Assembly (NCBI GenBank): GCA_003218375.1 | Contig: QHNH01000017.1 | Location: forward strand, 1-35,889 | Length of the DNA: 35,889 nt | From: Verrucomicrobiota bacterium | GTDB lineage: Bacteria; Verrucomicrobiota; Verrucomicrobiia; Chthoniobacterales; UBA10450 | Direction: 5' to 3' | Shown here: in pieces, positions 1-7,558 of the stretch | Layout: every line of letters begins with the position of its first letter | Position numbering within the stretch: the first letter of the stretch is position 1 | Made by a program: the position numbers and the translations under genes | The notes under the pieces: model-generated | What the model saw: the letters and a program-made list of their open reading frames with translations, nothing else | Databases searched by the model: none | Told to the model about the DNA's origin: nothing

Positions 1-2
1 AG

Positions 3-1178
3 ACCTTCAGCATCGAGTTATTCCAGCGTCTGATTCTTCACCGGGTGCTGGAGCTTGGCTGGACAACGGAGCGATTCGGAGAATTCGACGACCGAGTCTT
101 TTCAGCCGGCCGCGAATCTCGCAAACCAGAACGCGTTGGGAAGAAATACCAGTGGATCGCCTACGACGAGTTTCACGCCCGGATCAGCGACAATTTTGGC
201 GTTGCTGAAACTGATATGCCGGTTATGCCAGATCGTGACTGGGAACAAGGCTTGTGGCCTCTCGAATTCCGAGACCTTGATCCGTCCCTGTTGCTCAAGG
301 GAACTCCGAGAGATGGTTGGGGTGTCAATCACTTCAATTGGTGGACTCCCTGTCGTTACGACGCTTGGACATCACAAGCCACGCCGTCGCAGTGGCTGCA
401 ATCCCCCGCTGATTTACCTCCACCAACTGACTTCTTTGATTTAGCGGAGCCTGATGGTGGCAAACGCTGGCTCATGCTGGAGGGATACTCGCATTGGCGT
501 CAAAAAGAAGCCGTCGCATTTGAAGGCAGGGAAGCCGACAAGCAAGAACTTCATTACATCATTCGCTCGTATCTCACGCGGCGCGAACACCTGCCTGCAA
601 TAATGGCATGGGGTCGCGAACAGAATTGGATCAACGATCGATTACCTCAGCCGGATGGTCGGTATCGGCAGCATCTTCATGAGCATCATTGGAGCGCACA
701 CTTTGATAGCCAGCTTGAAGACGAGTGGATTTCGGGACTCTGGCGTTCTACTGACCTGCCTCACCCAATGGTCGAAACAACGGGTGAATACGTGTGTGAG
801 TATAACACCTATGACTGCTCTTTGGACTCAACAGTAATCATTTCGCTTCCTTCCCGTTGGTTGGCGGAAAAGATGAGTTTGAAAATGGTGGGGCGGCGCG
901 GCGACTTTGTGGATGGTGCTGGTAATCTCATTGCCTTCGATCCCTCGACTAGGGAAAGCGGCCATGGTGCGTTAGTTGTCCGAAAGGATGCCTTGCGTGA
1001 GCTCTTAGATCGAGAGGGGTTGGCCTTGTTTTGGACTTTGCTGGGAGAGAAGAACATCTACCCGCCGGAGATGATTAGTAGCTGGCTTGGCCGCTTGACG
1101 ATTCTCGGGGTTTACTCGTGGGACGGTGAAGTGATAGCCGGCGATTTTCGCACTGAATTCCAACAGGGTCGCCGTTGA
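3..1178 (+). CDS. C-terminal part of a large protein, possibly a defence-type ATPase (5' end outside window)
   Basis: The frame is open to the left edge, so this is only the 3' part of a gene; the GTG at 45 is probably internal. No Walker motifs or other catalytic signature lie in the visible 391 codons. The start has the pattern L-GWT-ERFG-FD followed by KPERVGKKYQWIAYDEF and RDLDPSLLLK. From memory this resembles the conserved C-terminal region of very large ATP-binding (STAND-like) proteins proposed to act in phage defence; I could not check it. The protein is rich in Trp and has no signal peptide or membrane segment in view. Downstream is a long repeat-filled gap. The reading frame is certain; the family assignment is weak. 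Confidence 0.7.
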   Translation, partial: TFSIELFQRLILHRVLELGWTTERFGEFDDRVFSAGRESRKPERVGKKYQWIAYDEFHARISDNFGVAETDMPVMPDRDWEQGLWPLEFRDLDPSLLLKGTPRDGWGVNHFNWWTPCRYDAWTSQATPSQWLQSPADLPPPTDFFDLAEPDGGKRWLMLEGYSHWRQKEAVAFEGREADKQELHYIIRSYLTRREHLPAIMAWGREQNWINDRLPQPDGRYRQHLHEHHWSAHFDSQLEDEWISGLWRSTDLPHPMVETTGEYVCEYNTYDCSLDSTVIISLPSRWLAEKMSLKMVGRRGDFVDGAGNLIAFDPSTRESGHGALVVRKDALRELLDREGLALFWTLLGEKNIYPPEMISSWLGRLTILGVYSWDGEVIAGDFRTEFQQGRR

Positions 1179-1319
1179 GTAAGGGCGCAAGGGGTCTGTG
1201 AATCTCGGCGGTGGCGGCGCCCCGCGCGCCAGCAAATCCCCGTTTCAGAGCCAAATTCCAGAAGGCAGAAAGCGTCAGTCTTGTTGAATCTCGGCAAAAG
1301 TGAGAACCCAAAGCCGAAA

Positions 1320-1343
1320 TTCTGAAAAGCTGAAACGCTGAAA
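1320..1343. repeat. CTGAAA-rich short interspersed motif, copy 1
   Basis: Short motif of the form TTCTGAAAAGCTGAAACGCTG followed by AAA. It occurs at three intergenic sites in the window, with small variations and in the same orientation. Function unknown. Confidence 0.55.
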
Positions 1344-1574
1344 CCGGGCGGCCTTTTTCGGCTGGATCCGTCCAGCGTCGGCTAGAGAAACCTTTGTTAA
1401 CTTCGTTTTCTCCTGTTGACCTGTTCCGGAGTAAAAACAGAAGGCAGCGAAGGAAGCAAAGATGGCAACGGAGTTGCGAAGAGAATTGTTGCTCCTAAAC
1501 GGAGTTTGGGAACGAGGAGATCGTGGATTGACTGTTCGCGCGGGGTGGGGACACCAAACTTTCATGGGCGCTGT

Positions 1575-1601
1575 CTGCGGGTGGGGACACCCGCCACTAC
1601 A
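1575..1601. repeat. Half copy of the GCGGGTG palindromic repeat
   Basis: This is the right arm only (GCGGGTG-GGGA-CACCCGC followed by ACTACA) of the repeat found complete at three nearby sites. A degenerate GGGGTGGGGACACC lies about 30 bp to the left, so this may be an eroded full copy. Confidence 0.6.
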
Positions 1602-1698
1602 CCTAAGCTTTCATCCTGCGTTCCTGATTAATCCTCTTTTCAACACGCAATCGTTCCTGGTCTCATGGTTTCCAGATCTTATTATCCGCAGATGGGGA

Positions 1699-1763
1699 TT
1701 GTAGGGCGACCGCACCGGTTGCCGAATCCAACGCCGACGGCAGGCGGTGCGCCTGCCCTACAA
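1699..1763. repeat. TTGTAGGGC palindromic repeat, copy 1
   Basis: A 65-bp element that begins TTGTAGGGC and ends GCCCTACAA-like (CTGCCCTACAA), so its ends are inverted repeats. It contains an inner perfect hairpin CAGGCG-GTG-CGCCTG. Three copies are in the window. Here and near 3.6 kb it is followed, after about 22 bp, by the GCGGGTG repeat, forming one composite unit. Confidence 0.75.
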
Positions 1764-1785
1764 ACAAAACGGCGGGGCGACCAGG

Positions 1786-1871
1786 TGTAGAGGCGGGTGT
1801 CTCACCCGCAGATGTTTTAGTTTTGCGAATTGGGTGCTGATTTTCTGCGGGTGGGGGCACCCGCCGCTACA
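1786..1871. repeat. TGTAG/GCGGGTG palindromic repeat, copy 1
   Basis: An 86-bp element bounded by TGTAG and CTACA. Each arm is itself a hairpin (GCGGGTG-TCT-CACCCGC on the left, GCGGGTG-GGGG-CACCCGC on the right). A conserved T-rich spacer (GATGTTTTAGTTTTGCGAAT) lies between them. This design is MITE- or REP-like. No RAYT-type transposase is visible in the window. Confidence 0.75.
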
Positions 1872-1934
1872 TCGCCGCGTCCACGCGCTATGCCTTACAG
1901 GATCGCGAGTGGTTGGAGGGACATGAATAGCCAG

Positions 1935-2498
1935 CTACTCGCTCTTCTTCACGCTTTGCAGGATGGCTTGCAGCTCCGCAGCCCGGGCCTTCATCGGCGC
2001 GGCGTCTCCGGCTTGGACCAGAATCACCGGTAGTGTCGCCTTCACGTAGCCCACATCCTGAACGGCCGCACCGCCATCAATGGTGTCGGACTGGTGCACA
2101 TACTCCAACTCATTCACCGTGTCGGTTTGTTCCGGCCCCGGTTTGAAATCTTTGGCTTTCTTTTTCACTGCGTCGCGCATCGCGGTGATTCTCGTTTGAA
2201 GGTCTTCCTGCTCCGTGGTGATGAAACCGAAGGCCGCGCCATCCTTGCTCATCACGCGGTAAATCGGACCGACCGGACCGGCCATCTCTTCAAGCTTCCA
2301 GTCCTTGGGGACCAGGAATTGGATTCCAGCAGCCTCAATTTTCTGGGTCGCATTCTCGGTTGCGATGCCGGGCTTGGCCGCGGCTGTTGATTCGGTGGTT
2401 GTCTTCTTCGTGGCAAGCGATCCACCAAGGCCCTGGGCCTGACCGTTCATCGCGGCCGCTATCATAAGTATTACTGCAATCTTGTGGGTTTTCGTCAT
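1935..2498 (-). CDS. Exported protein of unknown function
   Basis: 187 residues. An N-terminal signal peptide (MTKTHKIAVILMIAAAMNGQAQ) is followed by a low-complexity Thr/Ala/Lys linker to about residue 50. A single small globular domain follows, with the pattern GIQFLVPKDWKLEEM then YRVMSKDGAAFGF. The shape (amphipathic strand, PKDW, then short strands) is like small periplasmic DcrB/PsbP-type alpha-beta domains, but no family can be named firmly. It is transcribed away from the HAD phosphatase gene upstream and separated from it by a palindromic repeat, so it is probably expressed from its own promoter. No cysteine lipobox was seen. Confidence 0.75.
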   Translation of the reverse strand: MTKTHKIAVILMIAAAMNGQAQGLGGSLATKKTTTESTAAAKPGIATENATQKIEAAGIQFLVPKDWKLEEMAGPVGPIYRVMSKDGAAFGFITTEQEDLQTRITAMRDAVKKKAKDFKPGPEQTDTVNELEYVHQSDTIDGGAAVQDVGYVKATLPVILVQAGDAAPMKARAAELQAILQSVKKSE

Positions 2499-2581
2499 GG
2501 TCAGCGGTGTAGAGCAAAAACGGGACCTTTTTGCGAAGATGTTGTAATTTCTTGTTTGCGCGGCGCTGTTGCGACGGAACG

Positions 2582-2666
2582 TGTAGGGCGGGTGTCCGAC
2601 CCGCAGATGTTTTAGTTTTGCGAATCGTGTCCTGGTTTTCTGCGGGTGGGGATACCCGCCGCTACA
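2582..2666. repeat. TGTAG/GCGGGTG palindromic repeat, copy 2
   Basis: Full copy with both hairpin arms and the T-rich spacer. The left arm has GTCCGACCCGC instead of GTCTCACCCGC. It fills most of the gap between the HAD phosphatase start side of the cluster and the exported protein gene. Confidence 0.75.
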
Positions 2667-2688
2667 TCATGCGTCTGACACAAACGCC

Positions 2689-3546
2689 CTACAAATTTGA
2701 GCCAAGAATGAAGTGCTCGATCGCGCTCGCGAATCCTTCTTCTTCGGATGAGGTGGTGACGTGGGTCGCAGCGCGTTTTACTTCCTCGCTGCTTTGGCCC
2801 ATGGCGATGCTGCGGAAGGATTTTTCGAACATGGAGATGTCGTTAGGCATATCGCCAAGGGTAGCAACTTCGCTGGGATCGATCTTGAGCATCTTCCCCA
2901 GCGCGATGACGACGGCGCCTTTGTTGGCCTCGGGATGGGTGACATCGACGTAGTAAGGTTGGGAGCGCGCGGCGAAAACGGCGGGCGGTTGATGATCGCG
3001 ATGCGGGGTAGTCTTTTTGCAAAGAACATTGGTCGAAAATTGGCGGACGATGTCGGCTTCGCAGCGCGCTACCGCGTCCAGATCGTCGCTGATCCCGACG
3101 ACCTTTACGACTTCGTCCATCTTATCGGAAAAATCGGGAACGACGGTAGGTGGGAATTTCACGGTCCATTCTTCGCGGTCGACATGCGGTCCGTGGCGTT
3201 CGCGCACGAACCAATCGTTGCCGCGATAGATCCAGGAGTCGAGCTGGTGCGCCGCGATGATCGCGAGAACGGGTTCGACGGCGTCTCGGGCCAGGACGCG
3301 CTGTTCGATCAACGAAAGGTCCGGCCGGACAAACTGCCCGCCGTTGAAGGCAGCGAGCGGAGTCGTTAGGCCGAGCGGTTCGACGAACATTTGCATTCCG
3401 CGCGGCGGGCGGCCGCTCGTGATGGCGAAGGCGATGCCGGCGCGAGCCAAAGCCTGCACGCTCGCGATGGCTCGCGGGGTCAGCACCTTCTCGTGAGTAA
3501 CCAGCGTGCCGTCGACATCGGCCAGGACGAGCTTGATCGGAGTCAT
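2689..3546 (-). CDS. Cof-type HAD-superfamily phosphatase
   Basis: 285 residues, the usual length for Cof/YidA-type (class IIB) HAD phosphatases. Motif I is DVDGT at residues 10-14 (nucleophile D10, acid/base D12). Motif II is TSGRP at 43-47. The motif III lysine is probably K209 in PEANKG. Motif IV is GDMPND at 231-236, which binds Mg2+. The large C2 cap lies between motifs II and III. These enzymes dephosphorylate sugar phosphates, nucleotides or pyridoxal phosphate in the cytosol; the substrate cannot be read from sequence. It is flanked by palindromic repeats on both sides, which argues against tight operon linkage. Confidence 0.93.
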   Translation of the reverse strand: MTPIKLVLADVDGTLVTHEKVLTPRAIASVQALARAGIAFAITSGRPPRGMQMFVEPLGLTTPLAAFNGGQFVRPDLSLIEQRVLARDAVEPVLAIIAAHQLDSWIYRGNDWFVRERHGPHVDREEWTVKFPPTVVPDFSDKMDEVVKVVGISDDLDAVARCEADIVRQFSTNVLCKKTTPHRDHQPPAVFAARSQPYYVDVTHPEANKGAVVIALGKMLKIDPSEVATLGDMPNDISMFEKSFRSIAMGQSSEEVKRAATHVTTSSEEEGFASAIEHFILGSNL

Positions 3547-3599
3547 TTTTTCAATCTACGGCAAGGATTGGACGAAATGCTAGAGTGCCAAGCAACCAA

Positions 3600-3664
3600 T
3601 TGTAGGGTGACCGCTCCGGTTGCCGAATCCAACAACGATGGCAGGCGGTGCGCCTGCCCTACAA
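3600..3664. repeat. TTGTAGGGC palindromic repeat, copy 2
   Basis: Close copy of the element near 1.7 kb, including GTTGCCGAATCCAAC and the CAGGCG-GTG-CGCCTG hairpin. The left end reads TTGTAGGGTGACC, so one arm base differs. It is part of a composite with the GCGGGTG repeat that follows. Confidence 0.75.
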
Positions 3665-3685
3665 ACAAAGCGGCTGGCGATCAGG

Positions 3686-3770
3686 TGTAGAGGCGGGTGT
3701 CTCACCCACAGATGTTTAGTTTTGCGAATCGTCTTCTGATTTTCTGCGGGTGGGGACACCCGCCTCTACA
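3686..3770. repeat. TGTAG/GCGGGTG palindromic repeat, copy 3
   Basis: Full copy. The left hairpin is slightly degraded (CACCCACAG), the right hairpin is perfect, and the T-rich spacer is conserved. It lies between the end of the antiporter gene and the start of the HAD gene. Confidence 0.75.
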
Positions 3771-3777
3771 CCTAGCG

Positions 3778-5352
3778 TCACGTTGCTCGCCGTTGGAGGC
3801 GGGCTTCGGCGAGGTCGATGTCGTGCTGGATGTGGCGGAGGACTTCGTCGCTGATCGATCCTTCGTTGCGGAGAGCTATGACCGTTTCACGTTCGGTTTC
3901 CAACGCTTCGCGAGCGAGTTCTTCGAAGTCGCGTGAGTATAAGCGGTGAAGGCCGCCGCCCTGCGATGGTTCCTTGCTCAGTTGCCGGATGCGATCGGCG
4001 TATTCGGAGCGAAGACGCTCGACGCTCTGGGCCCGGGCGCGATTCGATGAGCCCATGTCTTCGACGCGCGCCAGAGCCGCTTCGTTCGCTTTCAAGCGCG
4101 CCAGTCTTTCTTCTTTCTCGGTAACGTGGTCGTCCACAATGCTCAGCCAGCCGACCAGAGGCTTAAGGGTGAGTCCCTGAAGGACGAGCGTTCCGAAGAT
4201 GACGCAGAACGTGAGGAGGAGGATGAGATCGCGGCCGGGAAACGGTGCGCCATCAGCCAGGACAAAAGGAATAGCGAGCGCGCCGGCCAGCGAATCGGCG
4301 CCGCGCATTCCGGTCCAGGCGATCAAGGCTGTCTGTTGCCAGGGCGCCGGATTTCTCCGGCGAAATGCCGGGCTGAAGAGACGAGGCAAGTAGGTGGCAA
4401 CGAATAGCCAGACAAAACGAACGAGGATGATCGCTAACAGAATCAGCAGCGCCAATTTCACGATGGCGACCGTCGATCCTGGAGGAAGGGCGTGGATCAC
4501 CTGCGGTAGTTGCAGGCCGATCAGCATGAAAAGGATTCCGTTCAAAATGAACGTGACCATTTGCCAAACCGGCACGGCTTGGAGCCGCATTCGGCCACTC
4601 AGGACACGCGGGGCGCGCCAGCCGTAATAAATTCCGGCAATCACTACCGCCAGAATGCCGGAGACGTGCAACTTTTCCCCGCTGAAGTAGGCGACGTAAG
4701 GAGTTAGGAGCGAGAACATGGTTTGGACCGGCGGATCGTCGAGGCGTTTCTGCACCTGGGTCGCGAGCCAGCCGGTGGCGAGACCTACAGCAATGCCGCC
4801 CGCGGCGACGAAAAGAAACTGCGCGCTCGCCTGACCCAGGGAGAAAGTCCCGGTCAGCACGGCGGCCACCGCGAAACGGAACGAGATGAATGACGTGGCG
4901 TCGTTCACCAGGCTTTCGCCTTCGAGGATGACGATGATTTTGCGCGGCACTCTGAGATCTTTGGTGACGGCGAGCGCCGCGACGGCATCGGGCGGCGAGA
5001 TGAGAGCGCCGAATACGAACCCCACCGCCAAAGGTAATCCGGTGAGGAGATGCAAAGCGTAGGCGGCGGCGGTCATCGTGAGCAGGACGAGAAAAATGGC
5101 GAGCGGAAGAATCGAACGAAGGTTGGCGCGGAAATCTCGCCAGGAGGTGTAAACCGCCGCGGGATAAAGGAGAGGCGGGAGAAACAGATTGAAGACGAGC
5201 TGGGGATCGAGGTGGACTACGGGAAGCCCGGGCACCAGAGCGAGCAAACCGCCGGCAACGGTGAGGAGGATCGGATAAGGGACGTCGATTTTCCGCGCGA
5301 CGATCGCGAGGAGCGCGACAGTCACGAGGCAAATCAGGATTAGTTCGACCAT
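3778..5352 (-). CDS. CPA1-family Na+/H+ antiporter
   Basis: 524 residues from the ATG at 5352. I chose this start because the membrane domain begins at once (MVELILICLV). A longer frame would read through the CTGAAA repeat and into the divergent gene. About 12 hydrophobic segments span residues 2-420. The ion-binding motifs of the NhaP/YjcE type are present: ISPPDAV at 118-124 and EGESLVNDATS at 144-154, and later GMRGADSLA. A charged C-terminal tail of about 100 residues is predicted to be cytoplasmic and helical, as in long CPA1 members. It should exchange Na+ or K+ for H+ in pH and salt homeostasis. The 88-bp gap to the divergent DUF2911 gene should hold both promoters. Confidence 0.93.
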   Translation of the reverse strand: MVELILICLVTVALLAIVARKIDVPYPILLTVAGGLLALVPGLPVVHLDPQLVFNLFLPPLLYPAAVYTSWRDFRANLRSILPLAIFLVLLTMTAAAYALHLLTGLPLAVGFVFGALISPPDAVAALAVTKDLRVPRKIIVILEGESLVNDATSFISFRFAVAAVLTGTFSLGQASAQFLFVAAGGIAVGLATGWLATQVQKRLDDPPVQTMFSLLTPYVAYFSGEKLHVSGILAVVIAGIYYGWRAPRVLSGRMRLQAVPVWQMVTFILNGILFMLIGLQLPQVIHALPPGSTVAIVKLALLILLAIILVRFVWLFVATYLPRLFSPAFRRRNPAPWQQTALIAWTGMRGADSLAGALAIPFVLADGAPFPGRDLILLLTFCVIFGTLVLQGLTLKPLVGWLSIVDDHVTEKEERLARLKANEAALARVEDMGSSNRARAQSVERLRSEYADRIRQLSKEPSQGGGLHRLYSRDFEELAREALETERETVIALRNEGSISDEVLRHIQHDIDLAEARLQRRAT

Positions 5353-5371
5353 CGTTAAAGCAAAAGCTGAA

Positions 5372-5395
5372 TTCTGAAAAACTGAAACGCTGAAA
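5372..5395. repeat. CTGAAA-rich short interspersed motif, copy 2
   Basis: TTCTGAAAAACTGAAACGCTG followed by AAA lies in the 88-bp divergent promoter region between the antiporter and DUF2911 genes, so it falls in the antiporter leader. Confidence 0.5.
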
Positions 5396-5440
5396 AAAGG
5401 TAAACTAGACGCCATCGGGGGACGCGGCGAGTCTTGCGTC

Positions 5441-5977
5441 ATGAAATCAATTCGATCGATTCTTTTTGTTGTTACTGCTCTCGCCCTGACGTCGCCGCTT
5501 TTCGCCCAGGATAAGAAACCGCGGGTGAGTCCGCATGAGACGGTGAACGCGAGCGTCGGTGACGCGAAGATCACGATCGTTTACGGGCGGCCTTATACGA
5601 AGGACCCGAAGAGCGGGGAGAAGCGCAAGATCTGGGGCGGGCTGGTGCCGTACGGAAAGGTTTGGCGGTTGGGGGCGGATGAAGCGACGATCCTGACGAC
5701 GGACAAAGACATTTCGATCGGCGGGACGCCGATCAAGGCGGGAAGTTATTCGTTGTATCTGCTGCCGTCGGAGAGTGGCGCGAAGTTGATCGTGAACAAG
5801 CAGACGGGGCAATGGGGAACGAAGTACGATGAGAGCCAGGACCTGGTTCGAATCGATTTGAAGAAGCAGGCGGCGGATAAGCCGGTGGATCAATTCACGA
5901 TCGCTATCGACAACGGCATTCTAAAGCTGATGTGGGAAGACACGCAGTATTCGGCGGAGATAAAGGCAAAAAGCTGA
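5441..5977 (+). CDS. Exported DUF2911 family protein
   Basis: 178 residues. The signal peptide ends near LTSPLFAQ (about residue 23). The rest is a DUF2911 domain: SPHETV, ITIVYGRPYTK, IWGGLVPYGKVWRLGADEAT, then LIVNKQTGQWG and a C-terminal strand. The family is common in Bacteroidota, Acidobacteriota and Verrucomicrobiota, is predicted to be periplasmic, and has no established activity. The stop codon lies inside the CTGAAA-type repeat that follows, so the last residues may derive from the repeat. It starts a plus-strand run of small genes. Confidence 0.9.
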   Translation: MKSIRSILFVVTALALTSPLFAQDKKPRVSPHETVNASVGDAKITIVYGRPYTKDPKSGEKRKIWGGLVPYGKVWRLGADEATILTTDKDISIGGTPIKAGSYSLYLLPSESGAKLIVNKQTGQWGTKYDESQDLVRIDLKKQAADKPVDQFTIAIDNGILKLMWEDTQYSAEIKAKS

Positions 5978-6004
5978 AACGCTGAGATCCTGAAAAGCTG
6001 AAAG
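5971..6004. repeat. CTGAAA-rich short interspersed motif, copy 3
   Basis: AGCTGAAACGCTGAGATCC followed by TGAAAAGCTGAAAG. It overlaps the stop codon of the DUF2911 gene, which is read from the first TGA of the motif. Confidence 0.5.
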
Positions 6005-6013
6005 TCCGCGAGA

Positions 6014-6077
6014 TTGTAGGGCGACCGCTCCGGTTGCCTCACCAAATAATCCGGCAGGCGATGCGCCTGCCCTACAA
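6014..6077. repeat. TTGTAGGGC palindromic repeat, copy 3
   Basis: Same ends (TTGTAGGGC and GCCCTACAA-like) and inner hairpin as the other two copies (here CAGGCG-ATG-CGCCTG), with a different centre. Unlike the others it is not followed by the GCGGGTG repeat. Confidence 0.72.
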
Positions 6078-6173
6078 TCAAGACCCTTCCCAGCCTCCTG
6101 GCTTCCTCCATTCCTGGCTTCCTGATTCACTCCCTTCGGCTTGCGCGCTGATTCCCTGCGCGCACTGTGTGCC

Positions 6174-6644
6174 ATGCAAAGGATTACTCCAATGTTGTGG
6201 TTTGACGGCCAGGCGGAAGAGGCGGCGAAGTTTTACGTCTCGGTGTTCAAGAATTCGAAGATCAAAACGATCACGCATTACGGGGACGAGCCGCCGGGAA
6301 GGAAGGGACAGGTGATGACGGTGGATTTCGTCCTGGACGGGCAGGACTTCACGGCGTTGAACGGCGGGCCGCAGTTCAAGTTCACGGAAGCGGTCTCGTT
6401 CGTGATCAACTGCGACACCCAGGAGGAAGTCGATTATTACTGGGAGAAACTGACGGCGGATGGCGGCGAAGAAGTGCAATGCGGCTGGCTCGCGGACAAA
6501 TACGGGCTCTCCTGGCAGGTGGTGCCGACGAAGTTCTTCGATGAATGGGTCAAAGATCCGGCCGGATTGGAGCGCGTGATGCACGAGGTGATGCAGATGA
6601 AGAAGCTGGATCTGGCGAAGCTGAAGAAGGCGTTCGAAGGATAA
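6174..6644 (+). CDS. PhnB-like VOC superfamily protein
   Basis: 156 residues from the ATG at 6174; the upstream TTG at 6141 is less likely because the domain starts right after MQRITPMLWFDGQAEEAAKF. The PhnB/'3-demethylubiquinone-9 3-methyltransferase-like' branch of the VOC fold is shown by FYVSVFKNSKI, then DGQDFTALNGGP, the CDTQEEVDYYWEKL helix, and CGWLADKYGLSWQVVP. This family forms small cytosolic dimers. Members are often misnamed as methyltransferases, and the substrate is not known. No strong ribosome binding site precedes the start. Confidence 0.88.
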   Translation: MQRITPMLWFDGQAEEAAKFYVSVFKNSKIKTITHYGDEPPGRKGQVMTVDFVLDGQDFTALNGGPQFKFTEAVSFVINCDTQEEVDYYWEKLTADGGEEVQCGWLADKYGLSWQVVPTKFFDEWVKDPAGLERVMHEVMQMKKLDLAKLKKAFEG

Positions 6645-6676
6645 TTGCAGATTGTAGATTGCAGACTTCAGATTGA
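6644..6676. repeat. Imperfect ATTGCAGATTGTAG tandem in a gene spacer
   Basis: The 32-bp spacer between the VOC and DUF1684 genes is made of about four imperfect copies of an ATTGCAG / ATTGTAG / TTCAGATTG unit that runs up to the next start codon. Confidence 0.45.
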
Positions 6677-7558
6677 ATGAAGAAGAGATTCATATTTCTC
6701 GCGATCGCTCTTGGCGCGCTGAGCTCTGGGCAAGCGCAAACGAATTACGCGAAAGAGGTAGAGAAGTGGCGGAGTGAACGTGAGGCTAACCTGAAGAAGG
6801 AGACGGGGTGGCTGACGGTGGCGGGATTGTCTTGGTTGAAGGAGGGGATCAATACGGTCGGCGCGGGCGAGAAGTTTGATGTTCGACTGACGGACAACTT
6901 CAAGCAGGGGAAGTTCGGCGAGATCGAGTTCAAGGAGGGCAAGGCGGTATTGAAGGTGGAGAGAGGCGTGGACGCTCAAATCGATGGGAAGAGTGTTTCG
7001 GCACCGGTTGAACTGATGTCGGATGAGAAGGGGAAGCCGACGGAGATTCGGACGGGGACTCAGACCTTTTACCTGATCAAGCGGGAGGAACGGTTTGGGA
7101 TCCGGCTAAAGGACAGTAACAGCGAGGCGAGACGGAACTTCAAAGGACTGCATTGGTTTCCGGTTGATGAGAGTTACAAAATAACGGCGCAGCTCGAAGC
7201 GTTTCCCGAGCCGAAGGAGATCGCAGTGCCGAATGTCCTGGGTGGTAATTTCAAAATGAAGAGCCCAGGTGTCCTGAAGTTTTCCCTCAAGGGAAAAGAG
7301 TATTCGCTGCAGCCGGTCGATGAAGGAGAGGGAACGTTGTTCATCATCTTTCGCGACAAATCGAGCGAGAGCGAGACTTACAAATCAGGAAGATTTCTCT
7401 ACGCGGAGAAGCCGGTGAACGGGGAAACCGTTCTTGATTTCAACAAGGCTGAGAATCCGCCGTGCGCGTTCACTCCCTATGCGACCTGCCCGTTGCCGCC
7501 GCCTGGAAATAGCATCGAAATGGAGATCAAGGCGGGGGAGAAGAGGTATGGTCATTGA
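6677..7558 (+). CDS. Exported DUF1684 family protein
   Basis: 293 residues. A short signal peptide (MKKRFIFLAIALGALSSGQAQ) is followed by the DUF1684 domain. It has WRSEREANLKKETGWLTVAG near the start, then WFPVDESYKI in the middle. The family-typical C-terminal motif NPPCAFTPYATCPLPPPGN contains two cysteines. The strictly conserved Cys/Pro motif suggests a binding or catalytic role, but no activity is established. It lies between the VOC and DUF1232 genes with short, repeat-like spacers and may be co-transcribed with both. Confidence 0.92.
   Translation: MKKRFIFLAIALGALSSGQAQTNYAKEVEKWRSEREANLKKETGWLTVAGLSWLKEGINTVGAGEKFDVRLTDNFKQGKFGEIEFKEGKAVLKVERGVDAQIDGKSVSAPVELMSDEKGKPTEIRTGTQTFYLIKREERFGIRLKDSNSEARRNFKGLHWFPVDESYKITAQLEAFPEPKEIAVPNVLGGNFKMKSPGVLKFSLKGKEYSLQPVDEGEGTLFIIFRDKSSESETYKSGRFLYAEKPVNGETVLDFNKAENPPCAFTPYATCPLPPPGNSIEMEIKAGEKRYGH

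What the first reader, a model, noticed from the sequence alone, without database searches (positions are those of the whole stretch)
1699..3770. Composite palindromic repeats: TTGTAGGGC element plus TGTAG/GCGGGTG element
Two families recur, twice joined in the same order with a similar spacer (1699-1871 and 3600-3770), plus single copies at 2582 and 6014 and a half copy at 1575. Each has hairpin arms and inverted ends, as in MITEs or REP elements. All lie in the first 6.1 kb and none was seen from 6.1 kb to the right edge, so the left end may differ in history from the island-like centre.
Basis: seen in the sequence. Interest (0 to 1): 0.5.

Follow-up and report, generated by a model that had tools for sequence, protein, structure and literature searches.

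The report
RAYT-linked paired REP hairpin repeats
The repeats are small DNA hairpins in head-to-head pairs (REP elements) of a kind already known in bacteria, and one of the two families has consistently mismatched halves whose order follows the gene for the enzyme that probably moves them.

Summary
Confirmed. Window 1-6.1 kb holds two families of GTAG-tagged REP palindromes in inverted pairs: A (67 nt; 1698, 3599, 6013) and B (87 nt; 1786, 2582, 3686, half at 1574), plus a third REP (C) at 2671-2692. They are REP head-to-head dimers (BIME/REPIN in the broad sense); nothing supports classical MITEs. A is at 11 places of this genome (one partial) and in 38 of 58 relatives. Its probable transposase, a RAYT with A REPs beside it, was found in seven relatives but not in this genome, so the local A copies look like orphans. 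The A+B composite was copied with both borders at the outer REP ends. Element content varies between species at an orthologous site. New detail: A arms are near-obligate heteropairs. Each arm keeps its own stem, yet both arms share a stem type in only 3 of 75 listed pairs (26 expected). Beside A-type RAYTs, arms on the gene's strand are never AG type (0 of 14) and arms on the other strand always are (12 of 12). Heterodimer preference was published in 2013 without explanation; distinct ends, or avoidance of one long hairpin, could explain it. 'Left end of different history' is not supported.

The parts
1698..1764 (.). family A REP pair (A1): REP 1701-1723 (+), REP 1739-1761 (-); stem codes GAC / AGG
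1786..1872 (.). family B REP pair (B1): REP 1787-1809 (+), REP 1847-1870 (-)
1699..1871 (.). composite A+B unit, copy 1 (homology to copy 2 starts and ends at the outer REP feet)
1574..1601 (-). single B REP (half copy)
2582..2667 (.). family B REP pair (B2)
2671..2692 (-). single family C REP (GTAGGGCGTTTGTGTCAGACGC); its foot holds the TAG stop codon (2689-2691) of the HAD-like gene 2689-3546; a degenerate C-like REP is next to the same gene in sister genome G005
   Evidence: read; C REPs beside RAYTs
3599..3665 (.). family A REP pair (A2), codes GAC / AGG
3686..3770 (.). family B REP pair (B3)
3600..3770 (.). composite A+B unit, copy 2
6013..6077 (.). family A REP pair (A3), codes GAC / AGG

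Best explanation
The repeats are GTAG-tagged REP elements arranged as head-to-head pairs, non-autonomous units mobilised in trans by Y1/HUH transposases of the RAYT (TnpA-REP) family. Each A arm is a GTAG foot plus an 8-bp stem and 3-nt loop, which the RAYT would bind and cleave as single-stranded DNA. Family A is the RAYT-less form of an element whose two ends differ in stem code: beside A-type RAYT genes the end on the gene's strand is GG or AC type and the opposite end AG type. The mismatch keeps the single strand folded as two separate REP hairpins rather than one long one, and/or tells the enzyme left from right. In this genome the A-type RAYT was not found, so the A copies are probably no longer moved; the A+B composite moved or was copied earlier as one unit bounded by its outer REP feet. 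Shown: structure, distribution, RAYT association and polarity in relatives, variation at an orthologous site, composite borders. Inferred: single-strand transposition, the role of the mismatch, present inactivity. B's own RAYT is only approximated (B-like REPs beside RAYTs L167, L187 and L346).
For: Per-arm stems: 97.7% of cells paired and 17 cells with changes on both sides, each 0 of 500 shuffles as high. A pairs in 38 of 58 relatives (8 of 8 same genus, 27 of 29 other same-family, 3 of 21 other same-order). A-RAYT in G006 with A REPs on both sides: NF047646 86.3 bits (cut-off 80), TnpA-REP 4er8 E 3.4e-7. Homologues in G017, G034, G010 and G033 and a broken copy in G024 also have A-type REPs on both sides (in G033 the gene-strand REPs differ at the apex); G028, cut by a contig end, on its readable side. 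Polarity at these seven loci: 14 of 14 gene-strand REPs non-AG, 12 of 12 opposite REPs AG; five of the 14 are variant or decayed, and one AG-type arm with a decayed foot in G034 was left out. Composite borders at the REP feet. Variation at one orthologous site in eight congeners. Pfam Y1_Tnp in the own genome: 12 matches.
Against: No A-RAYT in the own genome: of its 12 matches the 7 listed are 36-43% identical, and the best-scoring one has other REPs; the assembly is a 52-contig draft, so a missed copy is possible. No excision, movement or strain-level variation was observed; all genomes compared are different species. In one search two of five measures do not exceed shuffles (pairs with a double change 4 against 3.2, 213 of 500; further pair types 7 against 8.5, 500 of 500). 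One long hairpin, part of the strict REPIN definition, is not favoured for A. 33 of 75 listed pairs are GG x AC without an AG arm, so the polarity seen beside RAYTs does not cover all pairs. Target duplications or excision scars were not shown.
Confidence: 0.88

Rival explanations
1. Palindrome avoidance: arms differ only because perfect inverted repeats of about 25 bp with a 12-nt spacer are lost (e.g. SbcCD-type cleavage, replication slippage), not because the transposase needs two ends.
For: Loops also avoid identity (7 of 75, expected 15.7, P 0.003), and loop type is not strictly tied to stem type. Making the arms identical in silico turns 72 of 72 pairs into one long hairpin, by about 15 kcal/mol. 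The two clean homopairs have long spacers (24 and 23 nt), though a heteropair of the same genus has 25. Di Nocera 2013 (PMC3733652, section read) proposed protection from such enzymes.
Against: Homotypic REP pairs of other families exist beside related RAYTs (GTAGGGGAAGCTGTTAGCTTCCC in G017, G030, G024) and elsewhere, also in the own contig (GGCGGTC type). Strand polarity relative to the RAYT gene is not predicted by avoidance alone.
Confidence: 0.35
2. Classical MITEs of a DDE transposase.
For: Inverted ends, short length, multiple copies.
Against: GTAG foot plus separately folding hairpins, a RAYT beside the same repeats, and no target duplication evident at the one aligned site. No DDE partner was searched for.
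Confidence: 0.02
3. Local segmental duplication alone explains the cluster in the window.
For: Three B copies share an inner spacer and are the only full-length B matches in the genome. The three A copies share the GAC/AGG codes.
Against: Homology stops at the REP feet on both sides of the composite and of the single copies; flanks are 10-35% identical over 20 and 40 nt, compared without gaps.
Confidence: 0.1
4. Transcription terminators or RNA elements without mobility.
For: Terminator-like pattern in 1150-6200: 12 found against 5.9 (sd 2.7) in shuffles, 4 of the 12 at A or B arms.
Against: Explains neither the RAYT association nor the site variation. No Rfam family in 1-7000. Terminator use may be a by-product.
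Confidence: 0.1

Closest known systems
GTAG-tagged REP repeats, head-to-head dimers (Di Nocera 2013, PMC3733652; abstract and four sections read)
   Same: GTAG foot, 6-13 bp stem, HH dimers, heterodimers common, RAYT nearby; Opitutus terrae (Verrucomicrobia) called highly enriched
   Different: Whether A or B equals one of its 24 families could not be checked (the figure is not held); that paper left heterodimer preference unexplained
E. coli BIMEs / REPtron with Y and Z2 REPs (PMC6006769, passages)
   Same: Inverted pairs of two REP subtypes around one TnpA-REP gene
   Different: E. coli REP stems carry a bulge (PMC8266576, passages); here short unbulged stems with three interchangeable code types
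REPINs of Pseudomonas fluorescens SBW25 (Bertels and Rainey 2011, PMC3116915, passages)
   Same: Inverted REP doublets, extragenic, linked to RAYTs
   Different: There the two halves pair into one long hairpin with compensatory changes across it; in A the compensation is within each half and pairing between halves is avoided

Membership tests
[quoted passage not shown]
   A and B arms; C arms
GTAG-tagged REP element, head-to-head dimer (BIME/REPIN in the broad sense) | Two REPs inverted, GTAG outside, spacer up to about 100 nt | tested here: met
   A spacers mostly 8-15 nt; B1 37 nt (coordinates)
GTAG-tagged REP element, head-to-head dimer (BIME/REPIN in the broad sense) | Many copies, mainly extragenic | tested here: inconclusive
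   Copies: A 11 distinct BLAST places, one partial; B pattern 20 hits. In the window the A and B elements lie between the main genes; placement genome-wide was not counted
GTAG-tagged REP element, head-to-head dimer (BIME/REPIN in the broad sense) | RAYT gene flanked by the same REPs | tested here: met
   Met for A in relatives; not found in the own genome; for B only B-like REPs beside L167, L187 and L346
REPIN in the strict sense (two REPs forming one long hairpin) | Arms pair with each other into one long hairpin | tested here: not met
   Family A: arm-arm pairing below all 500 shuffles; two hairpins favoured in 60 of 72 heteropairs. Not tested for B
RAYT (TnpA-REP) for the G006 protein | HUH motif, catalytic Tyr region, NF047646 over cut-off | tested here: met
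   86.3 bits against 80; MPDHLH and EKWLYVEENPVRAGLV in the sequence (which Tyr is catalytic is recalled); PDB 4er8. Pfam Y1_Tnp 20.7 bits is under its cut-off of 23
MITE (DDE-dependent) | Terminal inverted repeats with target-site duplication and a related DDE transposase | tested here: inconclusive
   No duplication evident at the one aligned site; no DDE partner was searched for

The most novel reading that the evidence does not exclude
Some RAYT lineages build their REP pairs from two obligatorily different hairpins, a left-end and a right-end code, whose stems evolve by compensatory change. This keeps the single strand folded as two separate recognition hairpins and gives the element a direction. 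It would answer the question left open in 2013, why REP heterodimers are preferred, and would separate heterotypic-ended from homotypic-ended RAYT systems.
Probability: 0.45. Interest if true: 0.6.

Novelty: new member of a known kind. Interest (0 to 1): 0.42.

Why it matters
It extends REP/RAYT biology to these bacteria with a clear enzyme-repeat match, and turns the known but unexplained heterodimer preference into a testable rule: stems kept within arms, identity avoided between arms, polarity following the RAYT gene.

Tried and rejected
The first transposase candidate near an A pair (IS200-like gene at C51) was rejected: other palindromes flank it and it matches IS200/IS605 NF033573 over its cut-off. 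The broken gene at C28 was set aside because other palindromes flank it. Among 80 named RAYT loci none had an A arm within 350 nt of the match. The A-RAYT surfaced only through a search with another own RAYT (L040) and then with the G006 protein.

A 'REP foot supplies the gene's stop codon' effect was tested. In 20 of 144 ORFs of 100 or more codons that end near an A foot, the stop is the foot's TAG (next commonest single distance: 6 cases). But open frames of that length reach the foot in the three frames 26/17/27 times (of 192 feet), with no excess for that frame, so only a hint remains. The aligned site suggests that a pre-existing TTGTAG gene end served as foot in three species; this is read from the alignment, not tested.

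A universal physical need for unequal arms was rejected. Of 80 named RAYT loci, 48 have GTAG hairpins on both strands; 22 of these 48 share an identical stem start on both strands. Same-strand hairpins are still identical more often (85 of 113) than opposite-strand ones (37 of 176; 0 of 2000 permutations).

Rfam found nothing in 1-7000.

Full report
What is there. The first 6.1 kb of the window (contig C47 of a 3.96-Mb, 52-contig genome) holds family A pairs at 1698-1764, 3599-3665 and 6013-6077; family B pairs at 1786-1872, 2582-2667 and 3686-3770; a single B arm at 1574-1601; and a single C REP at 2671-2692. The A and B elements lie between the main genes (HAD-like, Na/H exchanger, DUF2911 and others). 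Each arm is a GTAG foot plus a short hairpin; two arms face each other with the feet outside.

Copies. A has 12 BLAST matches in the own genome, at 11 distinct places, one of them partial. B has three full-length copies, only here, and 17 matches in all; its hairpin pattern has 20 hits against 0 for the reversed pattern, and among the seven congeners only G006 has it (8 hits). A covariance model of A matches 38 of 58 relatives: 8 of 8 in the genus (own included), 27 of 29 others in the family, 3 of 21 others in the order. Counts per genome are lower bounds, since 92 of up to thousands of candidates were scored in each.

Structure. In 11 aligned A pairs (10 own, one from G005) each arm pairs with itself: 97.7% of cells, 17 double-change cells, covariation score 0.311, each 0 of 500 shuffles. 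The number of pairs with a double change (4 against 3.2) and of further pair types (7 against 8.5) does not exceed shuffles. Pairing arm with arm scores below all 500 shuffles. The variable part is a 3-nt stem code (types GG, AG, AC by its last two bases). Among 95 distinct pairs, mostly from loci fetched as model hits and including a few degenerate arms and one C-A pairing, 1 has equal codes (expected 23.1, sd 3.9). To avoid a model bias, a degenerate pattern that allows any code was run on 83 family genomes: 44 have it, and the reversed control has none. Of the 75 forward matches in the cut listing, 3 have equal stem type (expected 26.4, sd 3.9; 0 of 20000 shuffles), one of them with an arm that is not self-complementary. 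Loops are identical in 7 (expected 15.7, P 0.003). Types: GG x AG 34, GG x AC 33, AC x AG 3, AG x GC 2, GG x GG 2, AG x AG 1. The two sets overlap. DNA folding gives two hairpins -18.3 and one long hairpin -15.7 kcal/mol on average for 72 heteropairs (long favoured in 12). Arm-identical versions fold long in 72 of 72 for either arm; the three equal-type natural pairs also favour the long fold.

Enzyme. The own genome has 12 Y1_Tnp matches. Four RAYT-like genes (L035, L037, L038, L040) have GTAG or GTGG hairpins of other sequence on both sides; L040 is under the NF047646 cut-off (75.1 against 80). The A-type RAYT was found in G006: 145 aa, NF047646 86.3 bits, PDB 4er8 E 3.4e-7, two A pairs upstream and one downstream. 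Homologues in G017 (74%), G034 (70%), G010 (61%) and G033 (60%) have A-type REPs on both sides; G028 (70%, cut by a contig end) on its readable side; a broken copy in G024 on both sides. In G033 the gene-strand REPs have another apex. In gene orientation 14 of 14 REPs on the gene's strand are non-AG (five variant or decayed) and 12 of 12 on the other strand are AG; one AG-type arm with a decayed foot in G034 was not counted. Related RAYTs have other pairs, heterotypic (GGCGGCC/GGCGGCG type, C type) or homotypic (GAAGCT type). In the own genome 7 of 12 matches are listed, 36-43% identical; the best-scoring has other REPs. None lies in C47.

Movement. Composite copies 1 and 2 are homologous from ATTGTAG to CTACA, and their flanks are like random. 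In sister genome G005 the HAD-exchanger gap, with the same genes on both sides, lacks the A+B composite, though the gap sequence is not alignable and a decayed A-like hairpin may remain in it (read). Downstream of DUF2911 G005 also lacks A, but the next gene differs there, so this is not a clean empty site. At one aligned site in eight congeners: A pair in G000 and G006, decayed A in G002, another REP pair in G003, a double-foot REP in G001, other palindromes in G004, G005 and G007. So element content turns over between species at that site; movement within a species was not observed.

Neighbourhood claim. Over the whole contig 21 GTAG hairpins with stems of 8 or more were found (eight Markov-3 controls: 0-2): 5 in the first 6.1 kb, 1 in the rest of the window (17296), 15 in the remaining contig, including pairs of the families that flank the own RAYTs L037 and L038. 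The left end is therefore not special in carrying REPs; only families A and B are clustered there.

Comparison. GTAG repeats, their dimers and heterodimers, and their abundance in Opitutus terrae are published (PMC3733652; abstract and the sections on GTAG families, associations, dimers and transposases read). That paper states that heterodimer preference has no obvious explanation and suggests protection from nucleases. A library search for Verrucomicrobia, repetitive extragenic palindromic and transposase gave only that paper, as did REP-associated tyrosine transposase plus heterodimer; of 87 papers with Verrucomicrobi and RAYT the 10 listed showed no other relevant one. E. coli TnpA-REP recognises single-stranded REP but not its complement and cleaves at CT beside it (PMC8266576, passages), which fits two separate hairpins as substrate.

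Verdict. Ordinary in kind (REP pairs with a RAYT), new as a member, with one non-trivial regularity, the near-obligate heteropair with polarity, that deserves a bench test.

Noticed in passing
L006 and L293-L300 (G000:C22:46744 and orthologous sites): One convergent intergenic site holds a palindromic element in all eight congeners, but of at least four different kinds; a hot spot.
   Followed up: partly
window 2689-2691; L221 after 10175; L234: The TAG of a REP foot can be the in-frame stop codon of the neighbouring gene, including the A-type RAYT gene itself in G006; a frame control does not show an excess.
   Followed up: partly
L087:5400-6050 and L088:3460-4500: IS200-like and Y1-transposase-like genes of the own genome with other palindromes (CCAGCGCTTCAGCGCTGGG; GGGGCAACGCCCC), the latter next to a truncated A arm.
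   Followed up: no
window 1301-1351, 5361-5403, 5953-6011: Short runs of an 8-nt unit around GCTGAAA, also present near the same genes in G005.
   Followed up: no
L348 (G002:C85), L368 (G005:C18): Broken RAYT genes flanked by C-family heteropairs, a likely relative of the source of the C REP in the window.
   Followed up: partly
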